The notes below the pieces were generated by a model, which was given only the letters and a program-made list of their open reading frames with translations, was not told where the DNA came from and ran no database searches. Position numbers and translations under genes: made by a program. From assembly GCF_008039615.1 (NCBI RefSeq), contig NZ_VDUZ01000005.1, forward strand, positions 124,001 through 188,000: DNA of 64,000 nt, written 5' to 3'. The DNA comes from Vineibacter terrae (GTDB taxonomy: Bacteria > Pseudomonadota > Alphaproteobacteria > Reyranellales > Reyranellaceae). Numbering within the stretch: position 1 is the first letter of the stretch; each line of letters begins with the position of its first letter. Shown here piece by piece: positions 1,651 through 63,931 of this stretch.

Positions 1651-2604
1651 GTGACGGTCGATGCCATCATCACGGCCGACGTCCTGGACGTCGACACCAA
1701 GCCGGTGCGGGCGGATCGCCGTCGGCGTCCCCGGCCGTGGCGTCTGGCCTGGCTGCTGCTGCTGCTGCCGTCGCTGCTGTGCCTGGCGGCTTTCACCTAC
1801 CTGCCGGTGCTGCGGGTGGTGCTCGATGCGCTGTACGCCGCGCCGCACGGTACCGGCAGCGCAGCGCGCTTCGTCGGGCTGGAGAACTTCGCACGGGTCC
1901 TGGGTGATCCCGCCTTCCGTCAGGCGGCACAGAACAACCTCCTGTACGCCATCGGCACCGTCGTTCCCAGCGTGGTGCTGGCGCTTCTCTTCGCGCTCGC
2001 CGTCTGGCGTTCGTCGCGATTCAACACCGTGATGCGCACGATCCTGTTCCTGCCGTCGCTGGTGCCGCTGGTCGCGGCCGCATCGCTGTTCTTCTTCATC
2101 TTCCTCCCGGGCATCGGCTTGCTCGACTACTATCTGGGCAAGATCGGTGCATCAGGCCTCAACTGGATCGGCGATTCGGACGTCGCCCTGTGGTCGATCG
2201 TCGGGCTGACGGTCTGGAAGAACGCCGGCTACTACATGCTCTTCTACATCGCCGGGCTGCAGGCCGTGCCGCGCGATCATATCGAGGCTGCCACGGTCGA
2301 TGGCGCCAATGCACTGCAGCGTCTGTGGCATGTGATCCTGCCGGCGCTGCGGCCGACCACGGCTTTCGTGGTCACCATTGCCCTGATCCACATGCTGACA
2401 TCGGTGGACCACGTCGTGGTGCTGACCAAGGGCGGCCCGAGCAACGCCACCAACCTGCTGCTGTTCTACATCTTCCAGGAAGCGCACGAGAATTTCGATG
2501 CCGGCAAGGCAGCCGCCGCCACGGGGATCAGCGTCGCCGTGCTGCTGGTCGTGTCGCTGGGTGCGCTGCGCGGCATGGACCCGGGAGGCGGCCGTGCGTC
2601 TTGA
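1651..2604 (+). CDS. ABC sugar/glycerol-3-phosphate-type permease 1 (UgpA/MalF-like)
   Basis: A 317-residue inner-membrane protein of the carbohydrate ABC permease family: a basic N-terminus, then about six helices. The EAA loop reads EAATVDGANALQRLWHVILPALRP (near residues 213-236). Translation starts at GTG 1651 behind AGGAG at 1640-1644. The downstream permease overlaps it by 11 bases, so the two form one operon. The glycerophosphodiesterase downstream suggests glycerol-3-phosphate or glycerophosphodiesters as substrate (Ugp-like). No ATPase gene (ugpC) is in the window, and the partner genes are damaged, so this importer may be dead. Confidence 0.85.
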   Translation: MTVDAIITADVLDVDTKPVRADRRRRPRPWRLAWLLLLLPSLLCLAAFTYLPVLRVVLDALYAAPHGTGSAARFVGLENFARVLGDPAFRQAAQNNLLYAIGTVVPSVVLALLFALAVWRSSRFNTVMRTILFLPSLVPLVAAASLFFFIFLPGIGLLDYYLGKIGASGLNWIGDSDVALWSIVGLTVWKNAGYYMLFYIAGLQAVPRDHIEAATVDGANALQRLWHVILPALRPTTAFVVTIALIHMLTSVDHVVVLTKGGPSNATNLLLFYIFQEAHENFDAGKAAAATGISVAVLLVVSLGALRGMDPGGGRAS

Positions 2605-4207
2605 GCGCCGTCTTGGCCCGGCGCTGATCGTCGCCGCCATCGCGGCTGCGGCCTTCGTCTGGGCGACGCCCTTCCTGTGGACCCTGGTCGCATCGTTGCG
2701 GCCCGAAAGCGCCGGCAGCGTCGACATGGCGTCGCTGTGGCCCGACTTTGCGCCGACCCTGGCCAATTTCCGGCTGGCGCTGGAGAGCGGCGACTTCGGC
2801 CTCTACTACATCAATACCGCGATTGTCGTGGTCGGCATCCTGGGCGTCCAGGTCGTCACGATCAGCCTGGCCGGATACGCCTTCGCACGCCTGCAATTCA
2901 CCGGGCGGGACGTGCTGTTCTATGTGTTCCTGCTGCAGCTGATGCTGGTGCCGCCGGCTCTGATCGTGCCGAACCTGCGCACCATCGTCGATCTCGGCCT
3001 CTACGACACACTGGCCGGTGTGATGGCGCCGTATTTTGCGTCGGCGTTCGGCACCTTCCTGATGCGCCAGACCTTTCTCGGCATTCCGCGCGACTTCGAG
3101 GAGGCGGCCGCGATTGACGGCGCGCCGTGGTGGGCGATCGTCTGGCACGTCCTGCTGCCCTTGGCGCGGCCCGGCCTGGTGGCTTTCGCAATCGTATCGG
3201 TGACGGCGCAATGGAACGAATTCCTGTGGCCTCTGATGGTGATCAACGATCCCGCGAGCCACACGCTCACCATCGGGCTCGCGACCTTCACCAAAGGTGC
3301 GGAAGGCGCCAGGGAGTGGGGCGTCCTGGCCGCCGGCACCCTGCTGGTGATGGCGCCGCTGGCCGTCGCGTTCGGGCTCGATACGGCGAACCCGCCGCGC
3401 ACCTGGGCCGAGCTGGTGGATGCGGCGAAGAAGCTCACGAAGCGCGATGGCGAGAAGATCGAGCGCCACGGCTTCATGATGCCCGGCAACTACGACACGC
3501 TGGGCTGGCTGATGAGCGCGCTGTCGATGTCCAACGGCGGCCGGTACTTCAATGAAAGCTACGGCGGCGAGGTCTACTACGATACGCCCTCGATGGTGGG
3601 TGCGGCGCGCCTGGTGGAGGACCTGGTGCACAAGCACAAGGTGATGCCGGCAGGTGTCGTCGACTCGGGCGCCGTGTCGACGGCCTTCTTCGCCGGCAAG
3701 GCGTCCATGATCCTGCAGTCCACCGGTTCCCTGTCCTTCATTCGCGAGAACATGAAATCCGCTTACAGCGTTGCCTTCGTGCCGCGCAAAGTGCGCAATG
3801 CCGTGCCCATCGGCGGCGCCTCGCTGGTGATGTTCAAGGGCCAGAGCGAAGCCAGCCAGGAAGCGGGATGGAAATTCATCCGCTGGCTGTCGTCGACCGA
3901 GGTCCTGGCCGGCTGGAGCCGATTTATAGGCTACTTCGCGCCGCGCAAATCGGCCTACGACATGCCCGAGATGAAGGCGTTCATCGCTCGTCACCCCGAC
4001 GCCAAGGTGGCGCTCGACCAGCTCGCCTATGCGCAGCCCTGGTTCGCGACCTATCAGACCGTGGCCGTGCGCAAGGCGCTTGAGGACGAGATGCAGGCGG
4101 TCCTGAACGGCAAGAAGAAAGCCGACCAGGCCGTCAAGGATGCGCAGCGCAAGGCCGACGAGCTGCTGCGTCCCTACGTCGAGCAGACCGCGCTGAAGCT
4201 GCCGTGA
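2594..4207 (+). CDS. In-frame chimera: UgpE/MalG-like permease fused to the C-terminal half of an extracellular solute-binding protein
   Basis: One uninterrupted frame of 537 codons from GTG 2594. Residues 1 to about 263 are a MalG-type permease: helices, then an EAA loop EEAAAIDGAPWWAIVWHVLL, ending inside its last helix at LLVMAPLAVAFGL. Immediately after (about 3380) the protein becomes a sugar/glycerol-phosphate binding protein, entering at ANPPRTWAELVDAAKKL, a stretch normally near residue 150 of a ~430-residue UgpB-type protein, and running to a normal C-terminus. The permease tail, the intergenic space, the signal peptide and the first lobe of the binding protein are missing. By MalG topology the binding-protein part would face the cytoplasm, so it cannot capture substrate. 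I read it as the scar of a several-hundred-base deletion; misassembly is the alternative. Confidence 0.8.
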   Translation: MRLERRLGPALIVAAIAAAAFVWATPFLWTLVASLRPESAGSVDMASLWPDFAPTLANFRLALESGDFGLYYINTAIVVVGILGVQVVTISLAGYAFARLQFTGRDVLFYVFLLQLMLVPPALIVPNLRTIVDLGLYDTLAGVMAPYFASAFGTFLMRQTFLGIPRDFEEAAAIDGAPWWAIVWHVLLPLARPGLVAFAIVSVTAQWNEFLWPLMVINDPASHTLTIGLATFTKGAEGAREWGVLAAGTLLVMAPLAVAFGLDTANPPRTWAELVDAAKKLTKRDGEKIERHGFMMPGNYDTLGWLMSALSMSNGGRYFNESYGGEVYYDTPSMVGAARLVEDLVHKHKVMPAGVVDSGAVSTAFFAGKASMILQSTGSLSFIRENMKSAYSVAFVPRKVRNAVPIGGASLVMFKGQSEASQEAGWKFIRWLSSTEVLAGWSRFIGYFAPRKSAYDMPEMKAFIARHPDAKVALDQLAYAQPWFATYQTVAVRKALEDEMQAVLNGKKKADQAVKDAQRKADELLRPYVEQTALKLP

Positions 4208-4282: not shown

Positions 4283-5143
4283 ATGATCATCGCCCAGATC
4301 ACCGACCTGCACGTCCGTCCCCCGGGCCGGTTCGCCTATGAGCGGGTCAACACGAACGCCATGCTCAAGGCCGCGGTCGACGCGCTGGTGCGGCTGGAGC
4401 GGCGCCCCGACGTCGTGCTGGCTTCCGGCGATCTGACCGATTGCGGCCTCGCCGAGGAGTACGTGGCGCTGCGCGAGCTGCTCGCGCCGCTGTCGATGCC
4501 GGTCTACCTCGTGCCGGGCAACCATGACCGGCGCGAGAACATGCGCGCCGTCTTCCAGGCCGACGGCTATCTGCCGGCCGAGGGCGAGTTCCTGCACTAT
4601 GTGATCGACGACCATCCGGTACGGCTGATCGGCCTGGACACCGTGGTGCCCGGCGAAGGCCATGGGCTGATGTGCCTGCGGCGGCTCAACTGGCTGGAGA
4701 CGCAGCTGGCGCGCACGCCGGGCGAGCCGACGGTGATCTTCATGCATCATCCGCCGTTTCTCACCGGCCTGGCCGACATGGATCGCATCAATTGCCGCGG
4801 CGGCGATTCGATGGCCGATATCGTGGCCCGCTTCCCCAATGTCGAGCGGGTGCTGTGCGGTCATCACCACCGACCGATCCAGGCGCGCTGGGCCGGCACC
4901 TTGGCGTCGGTCTCGCCCAGCACGGCGCACCAGGTGGCGCTCGACCTCAAGCCCGACAACAGCCCGACCATGTTCAACCTGGAGCCTCCGGCGTATCAGC
5001 TCCATGTCTGGTCGCCTTACTCGGGGCTCGTCAGCCACACGGCCTATGTCGGCGACTATGGCGGGCCGTACCCCTTCGTGCTCGACCCCGACTACCCCGG
5101 CCACGGCGCCGACAATGCCGCGCCGGCGGAAGCGGCGGAGTAG
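4283..5143 (+). CDS. GpdQ-like glycerophosphodiesterase (calcineurin-type metallophosphoesterase)
   Basis: A 286-residue cytoplasmic metallophosphoesterase with the full bimetal set: D8 and H10 (ITDLHV), D50 (SGDLTD), N80-H81 (PGNHD), H155/H156 (FMHHPP), H194 and H196 (CGHHHRP). Length and spacing match Enterobacter GpdQ (D8, H10, D50, N80, H156, H195, H197), which hydrolyses glycerophosphodiesters to glycerol-3-phosphate. A ribosome site, AAGGAG at 4270-4275, precedes ATG 4283. Its place behind Ugp-like permeases supports a role in using glycerophosphodiesters as phosphorus source. Other phosphodiester substrates are possible. Confidence 0.82.
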   Translation: MIIAQITDLHVRPPGRFAYERVNTNAMLKAAVDALVRLERRPDVVLASGDLTDCGLAEEYVALRELLAPLSMPVYLVPGNHDRRENMRAVFQADGYLPAEGEFLHYVIDDHPVRLIGLDTVVPGEGHGLMCLRRLNWLETQLARTPGEPTVIFMHHPPFLTGLADMDRINCRGGDSMADIVARFPNVERVLCGHHHRPIQARWAGTLASVSPSTAHQVALDLKPDNSPTMFNLEPPAYQLHVWSPYSGLVSHTAYVGDYGGPYPFVLDPDYPGHGADNAAPAEAAE

Positions 5144-5187
5144 GCGTGATGAGCCGGCGCAATGTCCTGCTGATTGTCGTCTTGTCG

Positions 5188-6732
5188 TCAGATGCGCCGG
5201 CCAGCACCTTCCCAGTACGGGTCGCGCAGCTTGCGCTTGAAGATTTTTCCTGAATCCTCACGCGGCAGCTCGGTGCGGAACTCGACCTGGCGCGGCACCT
5301 TGTAGCCGGCCACGCGCTCGCGCAGATGCGCCTGCACGGCGGCGGCGGTGAGCACGGCGCCCGGGATCGGCTGCACGACGGCGCAGAGCTTCTCGCCGTA
5401 TTCGTCGTCGGGAATGCCGAACACGGCGCAGTCGGCGACACCTGCCATCTTGTGCAGCTCGGCTTCGATCTCGGCGGGGTAGATGTTGACCCCGCCCGAG
5501 ATCACCATGTCGTTGGCGCGGCCGCACAGGTAGAGGTAGCCATCCCGGTCGAGATAGCCGACGTCACCCAAGGTGACGAGGCCCTGTCGATCGGCCCGCC
5601 GCCGCTTGTCGTCGTCGCCGTGATAGGTGAAGTCGGGAAAGTTCCGGTTGCGGCAGATGACCTCGCCGGTGCCGCCTGCGGCCACGTCGCTGCCGTCCTC
5701 GGCGATGATCCGCACGTCGCATGACGGCAGCGCGCGCCCGACGGTGCCGGGATGCGCCAGCCATTCCTGCGAATTGCAGTAGGTGACCGCGCCGGTCTCC
5801 GTGCCGCCGTAGTGCTCGTGGATGATCGGTCCCCACCAGTCGATCATCGCCCGCTTGACATGCACGGGGCAGGGCGCCGCGCCGTGCATCACGAAGCGGA
5901 GGCTTGAAAGGTCGTAGCGCGCCCGCACCTCGGCCGGCAGGCGCAGCAGGCGCACGAACATGGTCGGCACGGCCAGAAGATGCGTGACGCGCTCCTGCTC
6001 GATACGGCGCAGCAGGGTCTCGGCATCGAAGCGCGGCTCGATGATCAGCTTGGCGCCCATCGCGAAGAAGCGCAGGCTGAAGGCGTTGGGCGTCGAATGA
6101 TAGAGCGGGCCGGCCAGCAGGCAGGTGATGTCGGATGGTCTGTCTGCGTAGCCGAGACCGAAGATCACGGCGGCATTGCGCTCGGCTGCTTCTGCCTGTG
6201 CCTCGCTGGTCGGCGCGCGCCGAACGCCCTTGGGCCGTCCCGTCGTGCCCGAGGTGTAGATCATCGAGCCCAGCGCGGCGACACGGCCGCCTTGGCGCGG
6301 CGCGTGGCGTGCCAGCCAGTCCGTCCACCCGGTGACACCAGCCGGCAGCACGGCCGACTGAGGCGCCAGGCCGTAGGCGGCGACGATCGCATCAGGCGTC
6401 TCCACCACCAGCGTCAGCACCCCGGCCGGGATCGCATCGGCCATCCGGTGATGGAGATCGGCATGGATCACGATCGCCTTGGCGCCCGAGTTGACGAAGA
6501 CATAGCCGGCTTCGTCGACCGAGTTGTGCCAGTTCACCGGCGTCACGTAGGCGCCGATCAGGCTGGCGCCGGCGCTGGCGGTCAGGAAGGCGAAGTCGTT
6601 GCGCAGGCACACCGCGACCACGTCGCCGGGGCCGATGCCGTGCGCGGCGAAGCCGGCCGCTGCCCGCTCGGCCTCCCGCATCACCTCGTCATCCGGCCGG
6701 CGGCGATCACCGGCCAGGATCCATGCCGCCAT
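5188..6732 (-). CDS. Acyl-CoA ligase (AMP-forming), last gene of an lva-like cluster
   Basis: A 514-residue adenylate-forming enzyme that activates a carboxylic acid to its CoA thioester. The P-loop motif MIYTSGTTGRPKGV is at 157-170, YGGTETG further on, and the C-terminal lysine lies in SGKIFKRKL. The frame is open to 6759, but AAGGAGG sits just upstream of ATG 6732, so that start is chosen. It lies downstream of the dehydrogenase, DUF6285 and kinase genes on the same strand, matching the position and role of LvaE in the Pseudomonas levulinate operon. The exact acid is not readable from sequence. Confidence 0.85.
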   Translation of the reverse strand: MAAWILAGDRRRPDDEVMREAERAAAGFAAHGIGPGDVVAVCLRNDFAFLTASAGASLIGAYVTPVNWHNSVDEAGYVFVNSGAKAIVIHADLHHRMADAIPAGVLTLVVETPDAIVAAYGLAPQSAVLPAGVTGWTDWLARHAPRQGGRVAALGSMIYTSGTTGRPKGVRRAPTSEAQAEAAERNAAVIFGLGYADRPSDITCLLAGPLYHSTPNAFSLRFFAMGAKLIIEPRFDAETLLRRIEQERVTHLLAVPTMFVRLLRLPAEVRARYDLSSLRFVMHGAAPCPVHVKRAMIDWWGPIIHEHYGGTETGAVTYCNSQEWLAHPGTVGRALPSCDVRIIAEDGSDVAAGGTGEVICRNRNFPDFTYHGDDDKRRRADRQGLVTLGDVGYLDRDGYLYLCGRANDMVISGGVNIYPAEIEAELHKMAGVADCAVFGIPDDEYGEKLCAVVQPIPGAVLTAAAVQAHLRERVAGYKVPRQVEFRTELPREDSGKIFKRKLRDPYWEGAGRRI

Positions 6733-6750
6733 CGTTTCCTCCTTTTCATT

Positions 6751-6874
6751 CTCCCCCACGCAGTGGGGGAGGTGGCCGAAGGCCGGAGGGGGACCTCACG
6801 TGATGGTTCGCATGACGCACACCACGTCGGGTCCCCTCCGCCCCTTCGGGGCACCTCCCCACTACGTGGGGAGG
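6751..6874. repeat. Family C-like palindromic intergenic repeat
   Basis: Two GC-rich hairpin arms (CTCCCCCACGCAGTGGGGGAG at the left, an imperfect partner CTCCCCACTACGTGGGGAG at the right, with GGCCGAAGGCC and CCCCTTCGGGG in between) fill the gap between the acyl-CoA dehydrogenase and ligase genes. The layout resembles the other family C copies. It could attenuate or process the polycistronic message here. Confidence 0.75.
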
Positions 6875-6883
6875 ATAAAAGCA

Positions 6884-8194
6884 TCATTCAGCCGCGGCTT
6901 TCTCCAGCGCCGCGAACTCGCGCCGACGCGGGCCCATGAAGCCGAACAGGAAGCCCGCCACCTTGCGCATCTGGATCTCTTCCGAGCCTTCCGTGATGCG
7001 GTAGCGGCGATGATGGCGGTAGATGTGCTCGAACGGCTTGTGACGCGAATAGCCGATGCCGCCATGCACCTGCATGGCCCGGTCGGCGGCCTCGCAGCAC
7101 AGCCGGTTAGCCCAGTAGTTGCACATCGAGACCTTGTCGGAGAGCACCTTCTCGACCTCCGGGTGCGGCATCTGGTCCATTTCCCACGCCGTCTTGCGGA
7201 TCAGCAGCCGCAGCATCTCGGCTTGGGTGGCCAGCTCGACCAGCGGCCACTGGATGGCCTGGTTCTCGGCCAGCGGCCGGCCGAACGGCTTGCGCTGGCG
7301 CGCGTACTTCACGCTCTCGTTGATGCAGTACACCGCCGCGCCCAGCGAGCCCGCGGCCTGGCGGATGCGGTTCTCGTGCACGAAGGACTGCGCCAGTGCC
7401 AGGCCGCCCTCCAGCGGGCCGAACAGCGCGTCCTCCGGCACCCACACATCCGTGAAGCTCACGCGCGGATGGTCGGTGGGCATGTTGAAGGTCCACATGT
7501 ACTCCTCGACCTTCACGCCGGGCGTGCTCGTCGGCACCAGGAAGCAGCTGATGCCGCGTCCGTCGCCGTCCTTGCCGCTGGTGCGCGCGAAGAGCGCGCA
7601 ATGCGTCGCCACGTGCATGCCCGTGGTCCACATCTTGGCGCCGTTGATCAGCCAGCCGGGCTTGCCGTCACGCTCCTGCCGCACGGCGCGGGTCGCCATG
7701 TGGGTCGCGTCCGAGCCATGCTCAGGCTCGGTGAGGCCGAAGGTGATGCGCCGCCGCCCCTCGAGGGACCCGAAGATGAACTCCTCCTTCTGGGCCGGCG
7801 TGCCGAAGTCGCGCATCATCACGATGAACGGGAAGTTGCCGACGATGGAATGCTCGTTCTGCAGGTCGTTGTGCAGGCCCAACCCCTTGCTGGCGAAATG
7901 CTCACGGATCACCGCCATCCACAGGTTCGAGCCGTCGCGGCCGCCGAACTCCTTGGGCAGCGAGAAGCGGAAATGGCCAGCCTTGTCGGCGCGGCGCTTG
8001 GCCTCGCGCAGCAGGTCCTCCCATTCCTTGCGCGGCAGGCCCTGGTCGTCCCAGTTGGTGCGCGCATGCTCGCGGCGATGGTCGAAGAAACGCTCGTTGT
8101 CGTCCTGCGCCTGCAGCGGCTTGATCTCCGCCTCGATGAAGCGGTCGAGCTCGGCCAGGTAGTCGGTCAGCTCCTTGGGCAGATTGAAATCCAT
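6884..8194 (-). CDS. Acyl-CoA dehydrogenase-family flavoprotein (LvaC/ACAD10-11-like context)
   Basis: A 436-residue acyl-CoA dehydrogenase: the N-terminal helical domain, then the FAD-binding core (FGLTEPEHGSD, WLINGAKMWTTG), then a C-terminal helical domain with MQVHGGIGYSRHKPFEHIYRHHR and ITEGSEEIQ. The start is ATG 8194, preceded by GGGAGAAGG; the open frame further upstream is only repeat sequence. With the APH-like kinase and DUF6285 genes upstream it forms the split equivalent of ACAD10/ACAD11. In that family the kinase phosphorylates a 4-hydroxyacyl-CoA and the dehydrogenase domain removes the phosphate. An ordinary alpha,beta-dehydrogenation is the simpler alternative. Confidence 0.85.
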   Translation of the reverse strand: MDFNLPKELTDYLAELDRFIEAEIKPLQAQDDNERFFDHRREHARTNWDDQGLPRKEWEDLLREAKRRADKAGHFRFSLPKEFGGRDGSNLWMAVIREHFASKGLGLHNDLQNEHSIVGNFPFIVMMRDFGTPAQKEEFIFGSLEGRRRITFGLTEPEHGSDATHMATRAVRQERDGKPGWLINGAKMWTTGMHVATHCALFARTSGKDGDGRGISCFLVPTSTPGVKVEEYMWTFNMPTDHPRVSFTDVWVPEDALFGPLEGGLALAQSFVHENRIRQAAGSLGAAVYCINESVKYARQRKPFGRPLAENQAIQWPLVELATQAEMLRLLIRKTAWEMDQMPHPEVEKVLSDKVSMCNYWANRLCCEAADRAMQVHGGIGYSRHKPFEHIYRHHRRYRITEGSEEIQMRKVAGFLFGFMGPRRREFAALEKAAAE

Positions 8195-8240
8195 GGTCCT
8201 TCTCCCTTTGGTGGTGTGTTCGGCGTCTGAAGTTATGGGG

Positions 8241-8328
8241 ACCGCTTCATGGTGAGCTTGTCGAACCATGAAGCGGTTCGCACGGAGGTCGTACGAGGCT
8301 TCATGGTTCGACAGGCTCACCATGAAGC
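8241..8328. repeat. Family A palindromic repeat (copy 1)
   Basis: Two hairpins in tandem: 8241-8277 (ACCGCTTCATGG...CCATGAAGCGGT) and 8298-8328 (GCTTCATGG...CCATGAAGC, with TTCGACAGGCTCA in the loop). The same two-hairpin unit recurs at 20715-20830 and 23915-24001. It sits inside the operon between DUF6285 and the dehydrogenase genes. Confidence 0.9.
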
Positions 8329-8354
8329 GACGCGGCAGACTTCGCTTCCTGCAT

Positions 8355-8747
8355 TCATTCTGATGTCGCGGCTTTGTCCTCGGCCAGCGCCCGGCGATAG
8401 GCCGAGTAGGCCGGCTGGTCGATCGCGAGCTTGGTCATGGTCGTCCGTCGCAGATGCGCGACCAGGTCGGGATTCTGCGCCGTGAGCGTGCCGTTCTCGA
8501 GCTGCTCGCACAGCGCCTCGTTGAGCGCTTCCAGGGAGCCGTCGGCACCGAGCAGCGTGCGCAGGCGCTGATGCTCCTCGGCGTTGGCTTGCGGCGCGAT
8601 CTCGAGCTCGCGGCGCACGATGTCGAGCGCGTTGGCTGCGACGCGGGCATGGAAGGCGGTGTGGCCCTGCAGCTGCGGCATGGCGTGCTGGCGCAGGAAG
8701 TCGGCGACCGCGGCGAGGATCTCGATGGCGGAGGGCTGGTCCTGCAT
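8355..8747 (-). CDS. DUF6285 small protein, candidate LvaB-like kinase partner
   Basis: A 130-residue protein, mostly helical, beginning MQDQPSAIEILAAVADFLRQ and containing a conserved-looking NALDIVRRELE segment. I recognise it as a DUF6285-type protein, the small gene that habitually follows APH-like kinase genes in acyl-CoA catabolic clusters. The ATG lies 2 bases after the TGA of the kinase gene, so the two are translationally coupled. In Pseudomonas putida the small protein LvaB is needed with LvaA to phosphorylate 4-hydroxyvaleryl-CoA; that this gene is its counterpart is my inference from size and position. Confidence 0.75.
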   Translation of the reverse strand: MQDQPSAIEILAAVADFLRQHAMPQLQGHTAFHARVAANALDIVRRELEIAPQANAEEHQRLRTLLGADGSLEALNEALCEQLENGTLTAQNPDLVAHLRRTTMTKLAIDQPAYSAYRRALAEDKAATSE

Positions 8748-8749
8748 GG

Positions 8750-9778
8750 TCAGGCCCAGCCCTTGCCGGTGATCAAGGCCAGCAGGTCGATCTCCGTCTC
8801 GGAGGCGCGACGGCCGATTGCCGCGCGCTCCACCGAGCGGTCGGCGCCGCTGGCGAATGTCGCATACATGCCCATGCAGCCGATCCCCCATCTCAACGTG
8901 CCGTACACTTCCCAGAACCGCACCCGGTCGCGATCCACCGTGCGGCCGCCCGCGGCTTCGTAGCCGGCGAACAGATCCTCGCGCTGGCCGAAGCCGCCGA
9001 CCGGCTGGTCGATGTTGCCGAAGCGCCAGGAGTTCACCGAGATCCAGGCCAGATCCTCCATCGGGTCGCCGATATGGGCGCCTTCCCAGTCGAGCACGGC
9101 GCGCACACCCTCTGGCCCGATGATCAGGTTGCCGTGGCGGAAATCGCCATGCACCAGGACGAGGTCGGTCTGCGCGTAGGCCGGCGCGCGCTCGGCGAGC
9201 CAGCGGAACGCCAGCGCGAACACCGGATGCGGGTGGCGGTAGGACCGGTACAGCGTGCGGACGTTGCCGAGCTCGGTCAGGATCGGCGCCACGCGCAGCC
9301 CGGGCACGGCAGACGCCGTGAGCCGATGCAGGCGCGCCAGGATGGCGCCGCACTGGCCGGCGAGAAGCGGGCGGGCCGCGGCGAAGGCCTCGTCGCGCAG
9401 GATCCGCCGCGCCAGGGTCTCGCCTTCGATGCGGTCCATGAAGAAGCCGTGGCCGAGGCCATCGTCGGGCTGCAGCACGTAGCGCACGCGCGGCGCCGGC
9501 AATCCGGCGCCGGCGGCGGCCTGGACCACAGCCGCTTCCCGCTCCAGCGACAGCAGGTTGCTGCGCCCCACATCGACGCCGCGCGGCGCGCGGCGCAGGA
9601 CCAGCGGCAGCAGTCCATTCTTGCCCTGCGCCCCGTCGCACCGCACGTCGAACGACCAGGTTTCCTTGTTGGCGCCGCCGGACAGCCGTTTCAGGTTTGC
9701 GATGCCGGTGGCGCCCGGTATGGCGCCCGCGATGGCCTTGCCTACCAGGCCGGCGAAGGGATCGGCGTCAGTGCCCAT
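8750..9778 (-). CDS. APH-fold kinase of acyl-CoA cluster (LvaA / ACAD10-11 kinase-domain-like)
   Basis: A 342-residue phosphotransferase of the aminoglycoside-phosphotransferase/ACAD10-11 family. It has an N-lobe with LSGGANKETW, a Brenner-type catalytic loop LVHGDFRHGNLI, and a metal-binding VLDWEGAHIGDP. Despite the fold name, members next to acyl-CoA dehydrogenases are acyl-CoA (4-hydroxyacyl) kinases rather than resistance enzymes. It is first in the operon after the TetR gene (18-base gap) and coupled to DUF6285. Substrate assignment is from context only. Confidence 0.8.
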   Translation of the reverse strand: MGTDADPFAGLVGKAIAGAIPGATGIANLKRLSGGANKETWSFDVRCDGAQGKNGLLPLVLRRAPRGVDVGRSNLLSLEREAAVVQAAAGAGLPAPRVRYVLQPDDGLGHGFFMDRIEGETLARRILRDEAFAAARPLLAGQCGAILARLHRLTASAVPGLRVAPILTELGNVRTLYRSYRHPHPVFALAFRWLAERAPAYAQTDLVLVHGDFRHGNLIIGPEGVRAVLDWEGAHIGDPMEDLAWISVNSWRFGNIDQPVGGFGQREDLFAGYEAAGGRTVDRDRVRFWEVYGTLRWGIGCMGMYATFASGADRSVERAAIGRRASETEIDLLALITGKGWA

Positions 9779-9796
9779 GCTCTCGTGTCTCGTTGT

Positions 9797-10483
9797 CTAT
9801 GATGGTGGCTTCAGGGCGTGCTCGACGGCCTTGATGGCCGTGCGGCGCAGCGTCCGCAGGTCCATGCTCTCGGGACTGATCATCCACAGGAAGCAGACGC
9901 CGGTGAGCAGGCTGAGGATCAGGGTCGCCGCCGATGGCACGTGCAGGTCGCGGCTGACCTCGCCGGCGCGCTTGGCGTGCCGCAGCTGCTCCTCGAAGCG
10001 GGTGCGGAAGGAGCCGGTAGCGGCCACGAACGTGTCGCGGATCTCCTGGATGACGCCCAGCGATTCTGCCATCAGCACGTAGTAGGCGCGCATCGCGCTG
10101 CCGGCGCGATAGAACGTCTGCATGTAGATGTCGACGACCTCGCAGATGGCCGGCAGGCCCTTGGGCGCGCTCAGCGAATCGGGAAAGGCCTGGCGGTAGA
10201 AATTGGCGTGCATCTGCCCGACCAGCGCCTTCACCATGTTCTCCTTCGAGCCGTAGCGCTGGTTGACGAGGCCGCGGCTGTAGCCGGCGCGCGTGCCGAT
10301 CTGCTCCAGGGTCGTGGCGCCGAAGCCTTGCTGGGCGATCAGGTCCGCCGCCGCCGACAGCATCCGTCGCTCCGATTCGGCCCGCCGCTCGGCCTGCGTG
10401 CGTCGCGGCCGCGCGGCGGCGGTCTTGGTGCGCGGGCGCGCGCCGCCGGTATCGCTGAGCGTTGCCATGGCCGGACCGTACAT
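9797..10483 (-). CDS. TetR-family regulator of the lva-like cluster
   Basis: A 228-residue protein with an N-terminal TetR helix-turn-helix (LIAQQGFGATTLEQIGTRAGYSRGLVNQRYGSKENMVKAL) after a basic, proline-rich leader, and a ligand-binding helical C-domain. ATG 10483 or 10468 could be the start. It heads the catabolic cluster and is divergent from phnC, so it is likely the cluster's acyl-CoA- or acid-responsive repressor. Confidence 0.82.
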   Translation of the reverse strand: MYGPAMATLSDTGGARPRTKTAAARPRRTQAERRAESERRMLSAAADLIAQQGFGATTLEQIGTRAGYSRGLVNQRYGSKENMVKALVGQMHANFYRQAFPDSLSAPKGLPAICEVVDIYMQTFYRAGSAMRAYYVLMAESLGVIQEIRDTFVAATGSFRTRFEEQLRHAKRAGEVSRDLHVPSAATLILSLLTGVCFLWMISPESMDLRTLRRTAIKAVEHALKPPS

Positions 10484-10621
10484 AGTTGATGACGTGATAG
10501 CAAGTTATTAGCGCCGATTGCCCCCACAGCCGGCCTGTGGACTGACACCTAACTGCAATCATTCCGTCACGGGTCGGCAGCTAAAGCTGCGTACCGCTGT
10601 CGGAAGTCGAACCCGGGGGTC

Positions 10622-11458
10622 GTGATGCTGCGTCTGCAACAGGTGACGAAGCGCTTTGCCGAGAAGCGGGCGGTGGATGGCGTCACCGCCGTCATTCCCA
10701 AGGGCCAGCTCGTGGGCGTGATCGGCCGCTCGGGGGCCGGCAAGTCGACATTGCTGCGCATGATCAACCGCCTGGAGACGATATCGGAGGGTCGGATCCT
10801 GTACGACCAGGCCGATGTCGGCGCGCTCGGCGGCCGCGGCCTGCGCGCCTGGCGCGCGCGCTGCGCCATGATCTTCCAGCAGTTCAATCTCGTGGGCCGG
10901 CTGGACGTGCTGACCAATGTGCTGATCGGCCGCTCCTTCAACGTGCCGACCGGCCGGTCGCTGCTGAAGCTGTGGTCCGACGCCGACAAGGCGGCGGCGC
11001 TGGCGGCGCTGGACCGCTTCGACATGGCCCATCTCGCGGCCCAGCGCGCCGACACGCTGTCGGGTGGCCAGCAGCAGCGCGTGGCGATCGCGCGCGCGCT
11101 CGTGCAGGAGCCGGACATCATCCTGGCCGACGAGCCGGTGGCGTCGCTCGATCCGCGCAACACGCGCCTGGTGATGGACGCGCTGCAGGCCATCAACCGC
11201 GACCTCGGCATCACGGTCATGTGCAACCTGCACAGCCTCGACCTCGCCCGCGAATACTGCGACCGGCTGCTGGGCCTGGTGGCGGGCCGGCTGGTGCTGG
11301 ACGAGGCGCCCAATGCGCTTTCCAACGCCCGGGCACGCGAACTCTACGGCCTGGAGGCCGGTGACGTTGTCGGCGACCCCGAGCCGCTGCCGGCCGCGGC
11401 CTATGTCGCATCGACAACCCATCTCAGCATCGCCGCGTCCGGCATCCCGGCGCAGTGA
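10622..11458 (+). CDS. phnC: Phosphonate ABC transporter ATPase PhnC
   Basis: A 278-residue ATPase with Walker [10 protein letters not shown] (35-43), Q-loop MIFQQFNLV, signature LSGGQQQR, Walker [14 protein letters not shown] and the H-loop in CNLHS. Q-loop and spacing are typical of PhnC. It starts at GTG 10622 or ATG 10625, behind a GGGGG stretch. It supplies energy for uptake of phosphonates with PhnD and the two PhnE permeases that follow. Confidence 0.93.
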
Positions 11459-11483
11459 CATCATCCCCTACACGGAGATCGTC

Positions 11484-12398
11484 ATGTTCCATCGTCGCCA
11501 TTTCCTGCTCGCCTCGTCGGCCGCTGCCGTGTTCGTCGCCGCCGGCACCGCCCGGGCGCAGTCGTGGAAGGCCAAGTACCCCGAGCTGGTGTTCGCGGTC
11601 GTGCCGGCCGAGAACGCCTCGGGCGTCACCGAGCGCTATGCGCCCTTCATCGAGTATCTGTCCAAGGAGCTGGGCGTGAAGGTGACGCTGCGCGTCGCCA
11701 ACGACTACGCCGCCGTGATCGAAGGGCAGCGTTCGGGCAACATCCATATCGGCGGCTACGGTCCTGCGTCCTATGCCCGTGCCTACATCACCGGCGTCAA
11801 GGTCGAGCCGTTCGCCACCACCATCAACACCGACGGCTCGGTGGGCTACTACTCGGTCTTCTATGTGCGCGCCGACAGCCCCTACAAGAGCATCGACGAC
11901 CTGAAGGGCAAGAACCTCGGGCTGGTGGACCCCAACTCGACGTCGGGCAACAACGTGCCGCGCTTCGCGCTCAACAAGATGAAGATCAACCCCGACAGCT
12001 ACTTCGGCAAGGTGGTCTACACCGGCAGCCACGAGAACGCGATCATCGCCCTGCAGCAGCGCACGGTCGACGTCGCCGCCAACTGGCTGAACTCCGACGA
12101 CGACTCCAACCTGACCCGCATGGCCAGCAAGGGCATGGCGAAGAAGGAGGACTTCCGCATCATCTACAAGTCCGACCTGATCGCAAACTCGCCCTTCGCC
12201 TACATGGCCGACCTGCCCGACGACCTGAAGGCCGCGATCCGCAAGGCGTTCGCCGAGGCCCCGACCAAGGCCAAGGCGGCGTTCGACAAGCTGTCGGACG
12301 GCAAGGACCAGGGCTTCAAGACCGTCGACCACAAGTTCTATGAGCCGGTGGTCGAGCTGGTGAAGTTCATCGACCAGCTGCGCAAGACCAAGAGCTGA
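11484..12398 (+). CDS. phnD: Phosphonate-binding periplasmic protein PhnD
   Basis: A 304-residue binding protein. It has an N-terminal export signal (MFHRRHFLLASSAAAVFVAA, cut near ARAQ), then the PhnD core (FAVVPAENASGVTERYAPFIEYLSKELG..., GGYGPASYARAY, LVDPNSTSGNN). ATG 11484 has GGAGA upstream; the longer open frame is a shadow of phnC. An intrinsic-terminator-like hairpin follows directly, which would give more PhnD than permease. Confidence 0.93.
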   Translation: MFHRRHFLLASSAAAVFVAAGTARAQSWKAKYPELVFAVVPAENASGVTERYAPFIEYLSKELGVKVTLRVANDYAAVIEGQRSGNIHIGGYGPASYARAYITGVKVEPFATTINTDGSVGYYSVFYVRADSPYKSIDDLKGKNLGLVDPNSTSGNNVPRFALNKMKINPDSYFGKVVYTGSHENAIIALQQRTVDVAANWLNSDDDSNLTRMASKGMAKKEDFRIIYKSDLIANSPFAYMADLPDDLKAAIRKAFAEAPTKAKAAFDKLSDGKDQGFKTVDHKFYEPVVELVKFIDQLRKTKS

Positions 12399-12410
12399 CG
12401 CCACGACATC

Positions 12411-12448
12411 GCCGCCGGGTCCGAAACGGGCCCGGCGGCTTCCTTTTT
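12411..12448 (+). terminator. Intrinsic terminator/attenuator between phnD and phnE
   Basis: A 12-bp stem (GCCGCCGGGTCC paired with GGGCCCGGCGGC, one G-T pair) with a GAAAC loop, followed by TTCCTTTTT. It lies 12 bases after the phnD stop, and its T-tract runs into the TTG start of phnE. This fits partial termination within the operon, keeping binding-protein mRNA in excess. Confidence 0.85.
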
Positions 12449-13349
12449 GACGCTGGTCCAGCCCTTGTCCTCGCCTCCCCTCAAGCTCGACACGCCGCGC
12501 CTGGCGGTGCTCCACGAGGCCTATCGCGACGCGGTGCGCGCCAAGCGATGGCGCTCGGTCCTGATCGCCGTCTGCGTGGCCGTCGGTATCGCGGTCTCGG
12601 CCGTTTCGGCCGAGGTCGATCTCGGCAAGCTGTTCACCAACATCGACAAGTTCAGCAGCTATATCGGCCGCCTCTTCGTGCTGGAGAGCGGCCAGATGGT
12701 GTGGACCGACCCGGTCGAATGGTACTGGGGGCTGCAGCGCTGGCTGTCGCTGCTGGGCGAGACCCTGCTGATCGCCTATGTCGGCACGGCGCTGGGCGCC
12801 GCAGCCGGCATCGTGCTGGCGTTCCTGGCGGCGAGCAACGTCTCGCCGCATCCGGTGGTGCGGGCCGTCACGCGGCGCTACCTGGAGTTCTGCCGCACGT
12901 TCCCCCAGCTCGTCTTCGCGCTGATCTTCGTCATCGCCTTCGGCCTGGGGCCCCTGCCGGGCGTGCTCGCGATCGCGATCCACACCATGGGCGCGCTGGG
13001 CAAGCTGTTCTTCGAGGTGGTGGAGAACATCGACATGAAGCCGGTGGAAGGCGTCGCCGCCACCGGCGCATCCTGGCCGGCGGTCGTGCGCATCGGCGCC
13101 TTCCCCCAGGTCCTGCCCAACTTCGTGAGCTACACGCTGCTGCGCTTCGAGATCAACGTCCGCGAGGCTTCGGTGATGGGCTTCGTCGGCGCCGGCGGCA
13201 TCGGCCAGGACCTGATCGAGGCGATCCGCAAGTTCTACTACGCCGACGTATCGGCGATCCTGGTGCTGATCATCGTGACCGTGGCGCTGATCGACTTCGG
13301 CACCGAGCGCATCCGGCACCGGCTGATCGACGCGGGGACATCGGCATGA
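12447..13349 (+). CDS. phnE: Phosphonate ABC permease PhnE (first)
   Basis: A 300-residue permease. A charged N-terminus is followed by helices and the family segments WLSLLGETLLIAYVGTALGA, FPQLVFALIFVIAFGLGPLPGVLA, VEGVAATGA and VMGFVGAGGIGQDLIEAI (EAA-loop region). The start is inferred as TTG 12447, overlapping the attenuator T-tract; no ATG fits better. It overlaps the second permease by ATGA. Confidence 0.88.
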   Translation: MTLVQPLSSPPLKLDTPRLAVLHEAYRDAVRAKRWRSVLIAVCVAVGIAVSAVSAEVDLGKLFTNIDKFSSYIGRLFVLESGQMVWTDPVEWYWGLQRWLSLLGETLLIAYVGTALGAAAGIVLAFLAASNVSPHPVVRAVTRRYLEFCRTFPQLVFALIFVIAFGLGPLPGVLAIAIHTMGALGKLFFEVVENIDMKPVEGVAATGASWPAVVRIGAFPQVLPNFVSYTLLRFEINVREASVMGFVGAGGIGQDLIEAIRKFYYADVSAILVLIIVTVALIDFGTERIRHRLIDAGTSA

Positions 13350-20714: not shown

Positions 20715-20830
20715 GACTGCTTCATGGTGAGCTCAGGTGAATGCTTCGCATTCAACGGGTCAAACCATGAAGCAGTCCGCACCAACGTTGTGCGAGAGCC
20801 TTCATGGTTCGACAAGCTCACCATGAAGGC
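20715..20830. repeat. Family A palindromic repeat (copy 2), inside the phn operon
   Basis: Hairpin 20715-20777 (GACTGCTTCATGG...CCATGAAGCAGTC, with an extra internal stretch containing AATGCTTCGCATT) and hairpin 20798-20830 (GCCTTCATGG...CCATGAAGGC). It separates phnM from the HD-domain gene and fills almost the whole gap. Confidence 0.9.
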
Positions 20831-23914: not shown

Positions 23915-24001
23915 GCTTCATGGTGAGCCTGCCGAACCATGAAGCGGTGCACCACGGTGCGCGCGTGGGCCTTCATGGTTCGACAAGCTCACCATGAAGG
24001 C
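23915..24001. repeat. Family A palindromic repeat (copy 3)
   Basis: Hairpins 23915-23945 and 23969-24001 (GCCTTCATGG...CCATGAAGGC). The second one overlaps the last codons and stop of the adenosine deaminase gene. Confidence 0.9.
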
Positions 24002-61500: not shown

Positions 61501-62727
61501 CTAACGGGGAGCGGGCATCGGATAGCAGCGTGTCACCGCATCGAACGGGCCGTGGGCGGCGAGGCGCTGCGCCAGGGCATGGCGGTGGACCTCGGACGGG
61601 CCGTCATAGATGCGGAACGGACGGATATCGCGGTAGATGCGCTCGATGACCGTGTCCCGGGTTATCCCGATCGAGCCCAGGATCTGCAGGCAGCGGTCGA
61701 CAATTCTGCCGAGCAGCTCCGAGCACAGCACCTTGGTCATGCTGGTCTCGTTGCGCGCGTAGTCGCCGCGGTCGAGCAGCCAAGCCGCCTGCCAGACCGC
61801 GAGGCGGCACACATGCAGGTCGATCTCGTTGTCCGCCAGCATGAAGCCGACGCCCTGATGCTCGATCAGCGTCTTGCCGAACGAATGGCGGCGGCCGGCA
61901 TGCGCGACGGCGATGGCATGGCAGCGCGCCGCCTGGCCCAGCCAGCGCATGCAATGCGTGAGGCGTGCCGGCCCCAGCCGCACCTGCGCGTTGCGGAAGC
62001 CCTGGCCGACCTGCCCGAGCACGTCCTCATGGGGCACGAAGAGGCCATCGAAGGTCACCTCGGCATGGCCGCCGGGCGTGTTCGAATCGATCGTCTCGAG
62101 CATCCGGTCGATCTTGAAGGCGGGATCGCCGGCATCCGTCAGGAACATGGTCGCGCCCAGGTCGCGGCCGGCCACGTCGAACGTGCGCGCCATCACGATG
62201 TTGAGCGTGGCGCCGATCGCCGCGCTGATCATGTACTTGCGGCCGGAGATGACGTAGCCGCCGTTGACCTCGCGCGCCTGCGTCTGCAGCAGCGACGGAT
62301 CGGACCCGGCGCCGTCGGTCGCGGTCTCCGTCATGGAGAAGACCGTCCTGATCCGGCCGGCGACGATATCGGGCAGCCAGCGCGCCTTCTGCTCCGGCGT
62401 CGCCACCTGATGGAGCAGGTTGACGTTGCCCTCGTCGGGCGCCTGGATGTTGAACGCGAGCGGTCCCAGCGGCGACCAGCTCGCGGCCTCGAACACGACC
62501 GCCATCGATCGGTGGTCGAGCCCCAGGCCGCCGTATTCCCTGGGGCCATGCGGCGACAGCAGCCCCGCGGCCCGGGTCAGCGCCACCATCTCCTCGCGCA
62601 GTGAATCCTCGACGGTGTAGACGCCGTTGCGCGGGTCGTTCTCGAAGGGGACGATCTTGTCCGTCACGAACTCCAGCACGCGCTGGCGCAGCGTCGCGAG
62701 CTCCTGCGGCAATTCGAAATCAATCAT
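61501..62727 (-). CDS. Acyl-CoA dehydrogenase-family protein paired with an APH-like kinase
   Basis: A 408-residue acyl-CoA dehydrogenase (FSMTETATDGAGSDPSLL, YVISGRKYMISAAIG, ITRDTVIERIYRDIRPFRIYDGPSEVHRHALAQRL). ATG 62727 overlaps the stop of the kinase gene upstream by 8 bases. This is the two-gene equivalent of the ACAD10/ACAD11 kinase-dehydrogenase fusion, and the second such pair in the window. Confidence 0.87.
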   Translation of the reverse strand: MIDFELPQELATLRQRVLEFVTDKIVPFENDPRNGVYTVEDSLREEMVALTRAAGLLSPHGPREYGGLGLDHRSMAVVFEAASWSPLGPLAFNIQAPDEGNVNLLHQVATPEQKARWLPDIVAGRIRTVFSMTETATDGAGSDPSLLQTQAREVNGGYVISGRKYMISAAIGATLNIVMARTFDVAGRDLGATMFLTDAGDPAFKIDRMLETIDSNTPGGHAEVTFDGLFVPHEDVLGQVGQGFRNAQVRLGPARLTHCMRWLGQAARCHAIAVAHAGRRHSFGKTLIEHQGVGFMLADNEIDLHVCRLAVWQAAWLLDRGDYARNETSMTKVLCSELLGRIVDRCLQILGSIGITRDTVIERIYRDIRPFRIYDGPSEVHRHALAQRLAAHGPFDAVTRCYPMPAPR

Positions 62728-63760
62728 CGGCATGATCCTGCTGAAGAAGAAGCTTCGCGCGGCGCAGCAGCGACGGGATGGCGAGCGCGAAGCGCTCCCA
62801 AGTCGGATCGACCCGGCGGCCGTTGCGGTGGAGCTTGAGGTTGAGCCCGGCGATCGCGCCCATGCGGAAATGGGCGAAGGCCTGATGCCAGGCGAGGCGG
62901 TCGAGCGCCGGTCCGCCGGCGGCACGATAGGCCTGGATCAGGTCGGCCTGAGGCGGCGGTCCGTGCGGGCGCCATTGCGGATGCCAGGCATCGGCATCGG
63001 CGATCATCATGTACCAGCCGATATCGAGCCCCTGCGGGCCGATGACCGCCAGATCCCAGTCGACGACTCCCGCGAGCCGGCCCTGCTCGAACAGGATATT
63101 GCCGGGCTGGAAGTCGCCATGGACCAGCCCGACCGGGCTTGCCGTGGGCATCGTCCCGCCCAGCCTGTCGGCCAGGTCGTGGCAGGCCTCCCGCCACTGC
63201 GCATCCTCGGCGTGGCGGACCAGCGCCGTCCATCGCGCCAGCTCGCTTTCCAGCGTCACCGGTTCTTCCCAGCCGCCCAGCACGGCGCGCCAGTCCAGCC
63301 GATGGAAGTCCGCCAGGCTCTCGATGCCGCTGGTCCAGAGACGGGGGATCAGCGCCGGCGTCTCGAGGAAGCTGGCGTCGGGCTCCCAGACGATGAAGGT
63401 GCGGCCCGGCAGCCGCTCCATGATGATGAACGGGCTCCCCAGCGCCGCGTCGTCGGCGCTGGCCCAGCGTATCGCGGGGACCGGCAGGCCGCTTGCGTGC
63501 AGCGCCTTGAGCAGCGGCGCCTGACGGTAGATGTCCGTGCTGCCGCGCCGCGGAACGCCCACCGGCGCCAGCTTCAGGATGTACCGGCCGGCCACGCCGG
63601 CGGCACCGGCCAGGTCGACGCCGAAGGTGAGCCCGGCATGGCCGTCGGCCATCGGCGCGATGTCCGTGCAATGAACGGGTGCAGGTTCCGCCGTCTTGAA
63701 GAAGATATCCAGCCGCGCACGCAGCGACGCAAGCGGTCCTTGCGCTGGAGCACCCACCAT
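62720..63760 (-). CDS. APH-fold kinase paired with acyl-CoA dehydrogenase (ACAD10/11 kinase-like)
   Basis: A 346-residue kinase with LVHGDFQPGNILFEQ catalytic loop and GVVDWDLAVIGPQGLDIGWYM metal motif, plus a family-typical helical C-lobe. ATG 63760 has AAGGTGG upstream; the frame is open to 63871, so an earlier start is possible. Translationally coupled to the dehydrogenase. Likely an acyl-CoA or hydroxy-acid kinase rather than a resistance enzyme. Confidence 0.8.
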   Translation of the reverse strand: MVGAPAQGPLASLRARLDIFFKTAEPAPVHCTDIAPMADGHAGLTFGVDLAGAAGVAGRYILKLAPVGVPRRGSTDIYRQAPLLKALHASGLPVPAIRWASADDAALGSPFIIMERLPGRTFIVWEPDASFLETPALIPRLWTSGIESLADFHRLDWRAVLGGWEEPVTLESELARWTALVRHAEDAQWREACHDLADRLGGTMPTASPVGLVHGDFQPGNILFEQGRLAGVVDWDLAVIGPQGLDIGWYMMIADADAWHPQWRPHGPPPQADLIQAYRAAGGPALDRLAWHQAFAHFRMGAIAGLNLKLHRNGRRVDPTWERFALAIPSLLRRAKLLLQQDHADD

Positions 63761-63931
63761 TTCCACCTTCGCGTCGTTGCGTGACGAGCCGGCGAGATCG
63801 CGCGAAAGCGGCCGGCGCATGCCGGCCGTCGCTGCGCAATTCAGGATCGCAGCGGGGCTGCGGCCTGGCAATAGATCGCCGTTGCGTTTCGTACCGCGTG
63901 GCGGACGTTGGCGTATTTTGGCGCTTGCCGC

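What the first reader, a model, noticed from the sequence alone, without database searches (positions are those of the whole stretch)
5188..10483. TetR-kinase-DUF6285-dehydrogenase-ligase cluster: a probable 4-hydroxyacid (lva / ACAD10-11-type) catabolic operon lacking the ketoreductase
Gene order on one strand is TetR, APH-fold kinase, DUF6285 (2-base gap), acyl-CoA dehydrogenase, acyl-CoA ligase. This matches the logic of Pseudomonas lvaABC and lvaE, where LvaA plus the small LvaB phosphorylate 4-hydroxyacyl-CoA and the LvaC dehydrogenase-like protein removes the phosphate. The SDR (LvaD) that reduces the 4-keto acid is absent, so the natural substrate may already be a 4-hydroxy acid (for example 4-hydroxyvalerate, a lactone-derived acid) rather than levulinate. 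DUF6285 as the LvaB counterpart is the weakest link.
Basis: partly seen in the sequence, partly recalled or inferred. Interest (0 to 1): 0.72.

Follow-up and report, generated by a model that had tools for sequence, protein, structure and literature searches.

The report
Hydroxy-acid kinase cluster with different dehydrogenase
A bacterial gene cluster carries the same two-part kinase that is known from levulinic-acid breakdown, but its partner dehydrogenase lacks the residues that let the known enzyme handle a phosphorylated substrate, so it looks like a second, uncharacterised version of that chemistry.

Summary
The gene order is real: TetR, APH-fold kinase, DUF6285, acyl-CoA dehydrogenase, acyl-CoA ligase, all minus strand. 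The link treated as safe failed: the dehydrogenase is not an LvaC/ACAD10/ACAD11 enzyme. It has the canonical Glu instead of Asp and lacks all three phosphate-binding residues (ACAD11 R626, H634, R637), as do all 82 aligned class members. It belongs to a separate, highly conserved class, here 'ACADw'. In a 397-genome sample all 35 ACADw genomes carry the kinase-DUF6285 pair (34 by Pfam, one by a divergent fusion), unlinked in 11 of them; among close relatives 27 of 28 do. A true ACAD11/LvaC-type dehydrogenase with its own kinase does lie in this window, at 61.5-63.9 kb. Best reading: an LvaAB-type hydroxyacyl-CoA kinase coupled to a new dehydrogenase partner. Substrate and phosphate-release step remain open. 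New variant of a known kind.

The parts
9797..10483 (-). TetR-family regulator
   Evidence: TetR_N 48.7 bits; no NCBIfam equivalog reached its cut-off
8750..9778 (-). APH-fold kinase, LvaA-like; HGDxxxxN and DWE motifs intact
   Evidence: APH 110 bits; 33% identical to the LvaA-position kinase of the Stutzerimonas lva operon; alignment; among the ACADw-partner kinases in the tree
8355..8747 (-). DUF6285 protein = LvaB-type kinase subunit; predicted five-helix protein
   Evidence: PF19802 120 bits; 35% identical to the Stutzerimonas LvaB-position protein; AlphaFold mean pLDDT 96.2; fused to the kinase in relatives
8243..8329 (.). REP-like inverted doublet between DUF6285 and dehydrogenase
   Evidence: 32-nt arms, 97% complementary; 152 copies of the core in the genome with up to 1 mismatch, 0 for the reversed control
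6884..8194 (-). Acyl-CoA dehydrogenase of the 'ACADw' class (FHRQ[S/G]E at the ACAD11 R626/H597/R631/H634/R637/D753 columns); not LvaC
   Evidence: best PDB relatives are caffeyl-CoA reductase CarC and other ordinary ACADs, ACAD11 ranks far lower
6766..6860 (.). inverted repeat between dehydrogenase and ligase
   Evidence: 12-nt arms, 92% complementary
5188..6732 (-). acyl-CoA ligase, NCBIfam PRK12406 subfamily
   Evidence: 753.6 bits against cut-off 701; AMP-binding 196 bits
61501..62733 (-). the ACAD11/LvaC-type dehydrogenase of this window (RLGPARLTHCMRW, catalytic Asp in IYDGPSEVH)
   Evidence: 54-55% identical to the Stutzerimonas LvaC-position protein; best PDB match ACAD11 2wbi; motif RHRHRD
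62720..63871 (-). APH kinase beside the LvaC-type dehydrogenase, without DUF6285
   Evidence: APH 114.7 bits; in the DUF6285-less kinase branch; three PF19802 places in the genome, none here

Best explanation
The cluster encodes a catabolic module for a hydroxylated carboxylic acid. The ligase makes the CoA ester (inferred from family). The APH-fold kinase with the LvaB-type DUF6285 subunit phosphorylates a hydroxyl of the acyl-CoA (reported for LvaAB in the literature, inferred here from homology of the pair). The dedicated dehydrogenase, ACADw, takes the kinase product or its immediate successor onward (inferred from near-obligate co-occurrence), but with a canonical catalytic Glu and without the R/H/R phosphate pocket of LvaC/ACAD10/ACAD11. 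It is therefore a second, distinct dehydrogenase partner of the LvaAB-type kinase. TetR is the likely local repressor (inferred). The substrate is unidentified; a ready-made hydroxy acid rather than a keto acid fits the missing SDR.
For: LvaB identity of DUF6285: lva operons with DUF6285 in the LvaB slot; LvaB of KT2440 is a 12-kDa protein that interacts with LvaA in a pulldown, and lvaA, lvaB and lvaC are each needed for growth on levulinate (PMC6692424 passages). Unity of the pair: adjacent kinase in 38 of 38 sampled DUF6285 loci and 10 of 11 plasmid loci; single-chain fusions in both partner classes, e.g. L035 and L037 with ACADw, L218, L219 and L222 with the LvaC type; confident fusion model, pLDDT 92.2, pTM 0.91. 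Coupling to ACADw: of 397 genomes 46 have PF19802, 35 have ACADw, 34 both (Fisher p 7e-38 by genome, 1e-19 by genus); the exception, G247, has a kinase-DUF6285 fusion, missed by the Pfam search, directly beside its ACADw, so 35 of 35. In 11 of these genomes the listed places lie far apart or on different contigs, so adjacency alone does not make the signal. The kinase tree groups 75 of 76 ACADw-partner kinases apart from the 16 LvaC-partner ones. SDR in 1 of 16 ACADw operons. Import genes near relatives: TRAP transporter in Sulfitobacter; a gene cluster whose representative is Peripla_BP_6 in 6 of 16 ACADw operons.
Against: No biochemistry of an ACADw was found. In 18 of 80 ACADw loci no DUF6285 lies in the fetched flank (some flanks are cut by contig ends), and the genome's own second ACADw (65% identical, C22) has no kinase or DUF6285 in the 16.6 kb fetched around it. 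Among 41 close relatives PF19802 is missing in 2 of 28 ACADw genomes and present in 3 of 13 without ACADw; one of the two, G407, holds the pair cut by a contig end, the other, G397 (87% complete), lacks kinase and DUF6285. Co-occurrence is partly inherited: the 35 genomes are 19 genera. The same genomes nearly all hold the ACAD11/LvaC-type DNA motif too (34 of 35, against 78 of the other 362), so the kinase product could go there instead. The 87-leaf group of ACADw-partner kinases has support 0.0, and one ACADw-partner kinase (L048) falls on the LvaA side. The fold of DUF6285 matched nothing clear in the PDB.
Confidence: 0.55

Rival explanations
1. Division of labour: the kinase-DUF6285 pair makes a 4-phosphoacyl-CoA, an ACAD11/LvaC-type enzyme encoded elsewhere (in this window at 61.5 kb, or on contig C22) releases the phosphate, and ACADw is an ordinary dehydrogenase for another turn of beta-oxidation of the same compound.
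For: R626, H634 and R637 matter for phosphate handling in ACAD11 and are absent in ACADw. The HCMR-region DNA motif occurs in 34 of 35 ACADw genomes against 78 of the other 362 (a DNA pattern, not each match was translated). 19 loci hold both dehydrogenase types, 18 of them with DUF6285, among them many Bradyrhizobium, the Sulfitobacter plasmid and the window.
Against: It does not explain why ACADw, rather than the LvaC type, tracks the pair: LvaC-type genomes lack a PF19802 hit in 11 of 31 (one of the 11, G247, has a divergent fusion). The window's LvaC-type gene already has its own kinase next door.
Confidence: 0.25
2. One reading: a 4-hydroxyacid route in which this dehydrogenase is the LvaC/ACAD11 counterpart.
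For: Gene order, kinase-DUF6285 pair, missing SDR. His242 (ACAD11 H597) and Arg399 are present in 99 of 99 ACADw rows and in 44 of 44 and 41 of 44 LvaC-type rows; His242 with Arg or Lys at 399 occurs in only 1 of 61 other ACADs.
Against: Catalytic Asp replaced by Glu and R626/H634/R637 absent in 82 of 82; separate clade; ACAD11 is a distant PDB match.
Confidence: 0.1
3. The kinase acts on a tertiary or other non-4 hydroxyl, as 25-hydroxysteroid kinase does, to drive an ATP-dependent dehydration, and ACADw then oxidises the product.
For: Ranks 2 to 4 of the Foldseek matches of the kinase-DUF6285 fusion model are 25-hydroxysteroid kinase (9fsg, 9ft5); that enzyme phosphorylates tertiary steroid alcohols and its lyase was unknown (PMC8449060 passages). 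A third kinase-DUF6285 pair in this genome sits with a carboxyltransferase and a ligase.
Against: The passages read name no DUF6285 or LvaB partner for that kinase; a shared APH fold says little about substrate, and antibiotic kinases follow closely in the list.
Confidence: 0.1

Closest known systems
Pseudomonas lva operon (LvaR, LvaABCDEFG)
   Same: APH kinase followed at once by DUF6285/LvaB, then an acyl-CoA dehydrogenase gene; an acyl-CoA ligase in the set
   Different: dehydrogenase of another class, no SDR, no DUF485 and symporter genes, TetR instead of the LvaR-type regulator
ACAD10/ACAD11 (kinase-ACAD fusions) and their bacterial relatives
   Same: kinase plus ACAD logic; His242 and Arg399 shared
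   Different: no Asp, no R/H/R pocket; kinase not fused to the ACAD; DUF6285 present, whereas the word LvaB does not occur in the two ACAD10/11 papers
Sulfitobacter pontiacus plasmid cluster (L006/L128)
   Same: ligase-kinase-DUF6285-ACADw in one run, ACADw 75% identical
   Different: followed by two enoyl-CoA hydratases, thiolase and a TRAP transporter; LvaC-type gene about 8 kb away
25-hydroxysteroid kinase of Sterolibacterium
   Same: APH-fold kinase used to turn an alcohol into a leaving group
   Different: steroid substrate; no DUF6285 or ACADw named in the passages read

Membership tests
LvaA-LvaB type hydroxyacyl-CoA kinase | APH-fold kinase with HGDxxxxN and DWE motifs | tested here: met
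   alignment with LvaA-position kinases
LvaA-LvaB type hydroxyacyl-CoA kinase | LvaB-family (DUF6285) protein encoded next to the kinase | tested here: met
   PF19802 120 bits; DUF6285 occupies the LvaB slot in lva operons. KT2440 LvaB itself was not available
LvaA-LvaB type hydroxyacyl-CoA kinase | phosphorylation of a hydroxyacyl-CoA | not testable with these tools
   needs an enzyme assay
lva operon | LvaC-type dehydrogenase (catalytic Asp; R, H and R of the HCMR region) | tested here: not met
   Glu402; Phe271, Gln279, Gly282
lva operon | LvaD-type SDR | tested here: not met
   no SDR among the nine genes scanned in 4283-13349; no hit of the lva-operon SDR in the window at E 1e-4
lva operon | LvaR-type regulator and LvaFG transport genes | tested here: not met
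   TetR instead; no LvaR, LvaF or LvaG hit in the window at E 1e-4
lva operon | LvaE-type ligase | tested here: inconclusive
   a ligase is present, but the best window match to the lva-operon ligase is another gene, 57875-59386, at 31%
ACAD10/ACAD11 class | catalytic Asp and R626/H634/R637 | tested here: not met
acyl-CoA dehydrogenase superfamily | N, middle and C-terminal ACAD domains with catalytic Glu | tested here: met
ACADw class (defined here) | FHRQ[S/G]E signature with N275, R278, Q279, H394, H395, R397 (99 of 99) and H273 (98 of 99) | tested here: met
   clade support 1.0

The most novel reading that the evidence does not exclude
ACADw is a second, independently evolved ACAD-fold enzyme that processes phosphorylated acyl-CoAs. 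It uses Glu as base and a different set of polar and basic residues (His242, Asn275, Arg278, Gln279 and the RHHRRYR stretch just before the catalytic Glu) in place of the LvaC/ACAD11 pocket, and it works only where an LvaAB-type kinase is present.
Probability: 0.3. Interest if true: 0.75.

Novelty: new variant of a known kind. Interest (0 to 1): 0.55.

Why it matters
DUF6285 is named as of unknown function, and a search of the held library found no paper with that name. The synteny and fusions here give it a testable identity: LvaB, the second subunit of a hydroxyacyl-CoA kinase. If the ACADw partner is confirmed, hydroxy-acid removal by phosphorylation has two dehydrogenase solutions, and the new one is spread through alpha- and betaproteobacteria. 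Comparing the two should help to settle how a flavin dehydrogenase expels phosphate, which the ACAD10/11 authors call unclear.

Tried and rejected
Rejected: (1) dehydrogenase as LvaC counterpart, by residues and tree. (2) DUF6285 as an unrelated small protein, by synteny and fusions. (3) SDR loss as a peculiarity of this cluster: it is the rule in its class. Led nowhere: PDB sequence search with DUF6285 (best E 0.17); Foldseek (best E 1.9) and VIA-align (best Z 6.3 over 44 residues, none of 8 or more) gave no interpretable relative, which says neither that the fold is new nor old. Three literature searches for a pathway with kinase and dehydrogenase genes showed no title or abstract start that describes this cluster (listings only). 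The CoA-binding arginines named for the ACAD11 kinase (R86, R176) could not be mapped with certainty on the phmmer alignment and are not used. Substrate guesses from neighbours (hydratases, binding protein, TRAP, carboxyltransferase) stay guesses.

Limits: the ACADw loci L014-L093 are the best 80 of 580 confirmed matches of a capped scan and therefore close relatives. Around the DUF6285 places of the phylum sample 38 loci from 35 of 46 genomes were fetched. Some genes entered the motif counts twice: the 98 ACADw rows are 95 distinct sequences and the 39 LvaC-type rows 38; dehydrogenases under 320 aa were dropped before the count. The gene caller used for operon runs is home-made; operon counts are of the 73 loci that one search prints, fused kinases are not among them, and its SDR count is for one sequence cluster only. 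A plasmid locus (L013, Nonomuraea) has DUF6285 without an adjacent kinase, and a Comamonas cluster (L125) shows LvaC type, SDR and kinase with no DUF6285 annotated.
Full report
What is there. The five genes are real and in the stated order. Better starts are 8194 for the dehydrogenase and 6732 for the ligase. The 2-base gap between kinase and DUF6285 is right. Two inverted repeats interrupt the run; the one at 8243-8329 is a genome-wide REP-like doublet with 152 core copies at up to one mismatch.

DUF6285 is LvaB. The lva operon of P. putida KT2440 has seven genes; LvaB is a 12-kDa protein that interacts with LvaA in a pulldown, and lvaA, lvaB and lvaC are each essential on levulinate (PMC6692424, passages only). 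KT2440 itself could not be read here, so the identity rests on gene order. A Stutzerimonas plasmid holds a divergent PrpR-type regulator gene, then kinase, DUF6285, histidine phosphatase, dehydrogenase, SDR, ligase, DUF485 and cation-acetate symporter genes. In the genus of G333, 9 of 149 genomes have DUF6285. Eight of their loci were fetched and the ninth (L209) was in hand: L296, L297 and L298 have LvaR, A, DUF6285, C, D, E, F, G; L299 (cut by a contig end), L300 and L209 the same as far as LvaE; L302 has the P. citronellolis layout with DUF6285 between LvaA and the phosphatase; L301 and L303 are partial. The window protein is 35% identical to the Stutzerimonas LvaB-position protein, its kinase 33% to the LvaA-position one.

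The pair is one enzyme. In 38 sampled DUF6285 loci the kinase is adjacent on the same strand in all 38; in 11 plasmid loci it is adjacent in 10. Of the 80 ACADw loci, 62 carry DUF6285, and 16 of these have it fused to the kinase in one frame. Fusions also occur beside LvaC-type dehydrogenases (L218, L219, L222), in another part of the kinase tree, so fusion probably arose more than once. The fusion L053 models with pTM 0.91, the window DUF6285 alone as five helices with pLDDT 96.2.

The dehydrogenase is not LvaC. In ACAD11, R626, H634 and R637 beside the catalytic Asp753 matter for handling the phosphorylated substrate (PMC12440821, sections 7 and 10 read). At these columns the LvaC-type rows read R, H, R and D in 38 of 39 (one is truncated at the last), while the window class reads F, Q, S or G and E in 98 of 98 (95 and 38 distinct sequences; 82 of 82 on a separate MAFFT alignment). 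In a midpoint-rooted tree with 30 of the genome's 43 listed dehydrogenases the two classes fall in separate, well supported clades (1.0 and 0.96) whose common ancestor is the root. Shared traits exist: His at the ACAD11 H597 column and Arg three residues before the catalytic acid, in 99 of 99 ACADw and in 44 of 44 and 41 of 44 LvaC-type rows; His with Arg or Lys occurs in only 1 of 61 other ACADs, itself ACAD11-like. ACADw adds N275, R278, Q279 and an RHHRRYR stretch before Glu402 (H394, H395, R397 and R399 in all 99 rows; the whole stretch in all 82 rows), and H273 in 98 of 99.

Yet ACADw and the kinase pair belong together. In one sample of 397 genomes PF19802 is in 46, ACADw in 35 and the LvaC type in 31 at E 1e-85. 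ACADw and PF19802 coincide in 34 of 35 (p 7e-38 by genome; 18 of 19 genera, p 1e-19). The exception, G247, has a divergent kinase-DUF6285 fusion beside its ACADw. In 11 of the 35 (G134, G075, G187, G377, G255, G269, G140, G211, G231, G297, G295) the listed places are far apart or on different contigs. Of the 12 DUF6285 genomes without ACADw, 11 have the LvaC type at that cut-off, and the twelfth (G353) has one next door. By contrast, 11 of 31 LvaC-type genomes have no PF19802 hit, G247 among them. Among 41 close relatives PF19802 is found in 26 of 28 ACADw genomes and in 3 of 13 others; of the two misses G407 has the pair cut by a contig end, and G397, 87% complete, lacks both genes. In the 38 fetched loci the nearest dehydrogenase within 2.5 kb is ACADw in 13, LvaC-type in 10, another in 1 and none in 14. 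The kinase tree puts 75 of 76 ACADw-partner kinases with 12 others in one group and the 16 LvaC-partner kinases in another, but the first group has support 0.0 and one ACADw partner (L048) falls on the LvaA side. Near relatives are not independent, so genus counts are the fairer figure.

What it most likely does. Ligase, kinase-DUF6285 and ACADw fit a route that activates a hydroxy acid with CoA, phosphorylates the hydroxyl and moves the product into beta-oxidation. The first two steps rest on homology, the last on co-occurrence only. Whether ACADw itself expels phosphate is open. A DNA motif for the ACAD11/LvaC HCMR region is present in 34 of 35 ACADw genomes against 78 of the 362 others, and 19 loci hold both dehydrogenases, so a division of labour is a serious rival. 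25-hydroxysteroid kinase, a tertiary-alcohol kinase whose lyase was unknown in 2021 (PMC8449060 passages), is among the best fold matches and keeps substrates other than 4-hydroxy acids in play.

The genome has two more kinase-DUF6285 pairs, a second ACADw and a second strong LvaC-type gene on contig C22.

Verdict. Observation confirmed, interpretation partly supported, a new variant of a known kind. Rand et al. 2017 was not held; statements about KT2440 come from PMC6692424 passages, and those on ACAD10/11 from PMC12440821 (abstract, passages, sections 7 and 10) and PMC11342911 passages.

Noticed in passing
   Followed up: yes
window 8249-8323, 20804-20824, 23920-23995: REP-like 21-bp core ATGGTGAGCTTGTCGAACCAT, often in inverted doublets about 55 bp apart; 5 in the window with up to 3 mismatches, 152 in the genome with up to 1.
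   Followed up: partly
window 2498-4207 (+): One frame joins an ABC permease domain to the C-terminal part of an extracellular solute-binding protein: a deletion chimera or an assembly fault.
   Followed up: no
window 10622-13349 (+) and 4283-5143 (+): PhnC, PhnD and PhnE phosphonate-transport genes start divergently from the TetR gene; a metallophosphoesterase (best NCBIfam match SpdA, below its cut-off) lies on the other side.
   Followed up: no
L005 5209-9962 (-): Another kinase-DUF6285 pair of this genome, in a run with a carboxyltransferase and a ligase instead of a dehydrogenase.
   Followed up: partly
L302 3660-6992: lva cluster of the P. citronellolis layout with DUF6285 between LvaA and the histidine phosphatase, where the published LA18T cluster is said to lack lvaB.
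   Followed up: partly
L008 8345-8998, L009 8348-9109, L124 9381-10058: A histidine phosphatase gene follows DUF6285 in several LvaC-type operons, but no gene in the 80 ACADw loci got that label; its role beside a kinase is unexplained.
   Followed up: no
window 36169-36978 (-): A further APH-family gene (104.5 bits) away from any dehydrogenase of either class.
   Followed up: no
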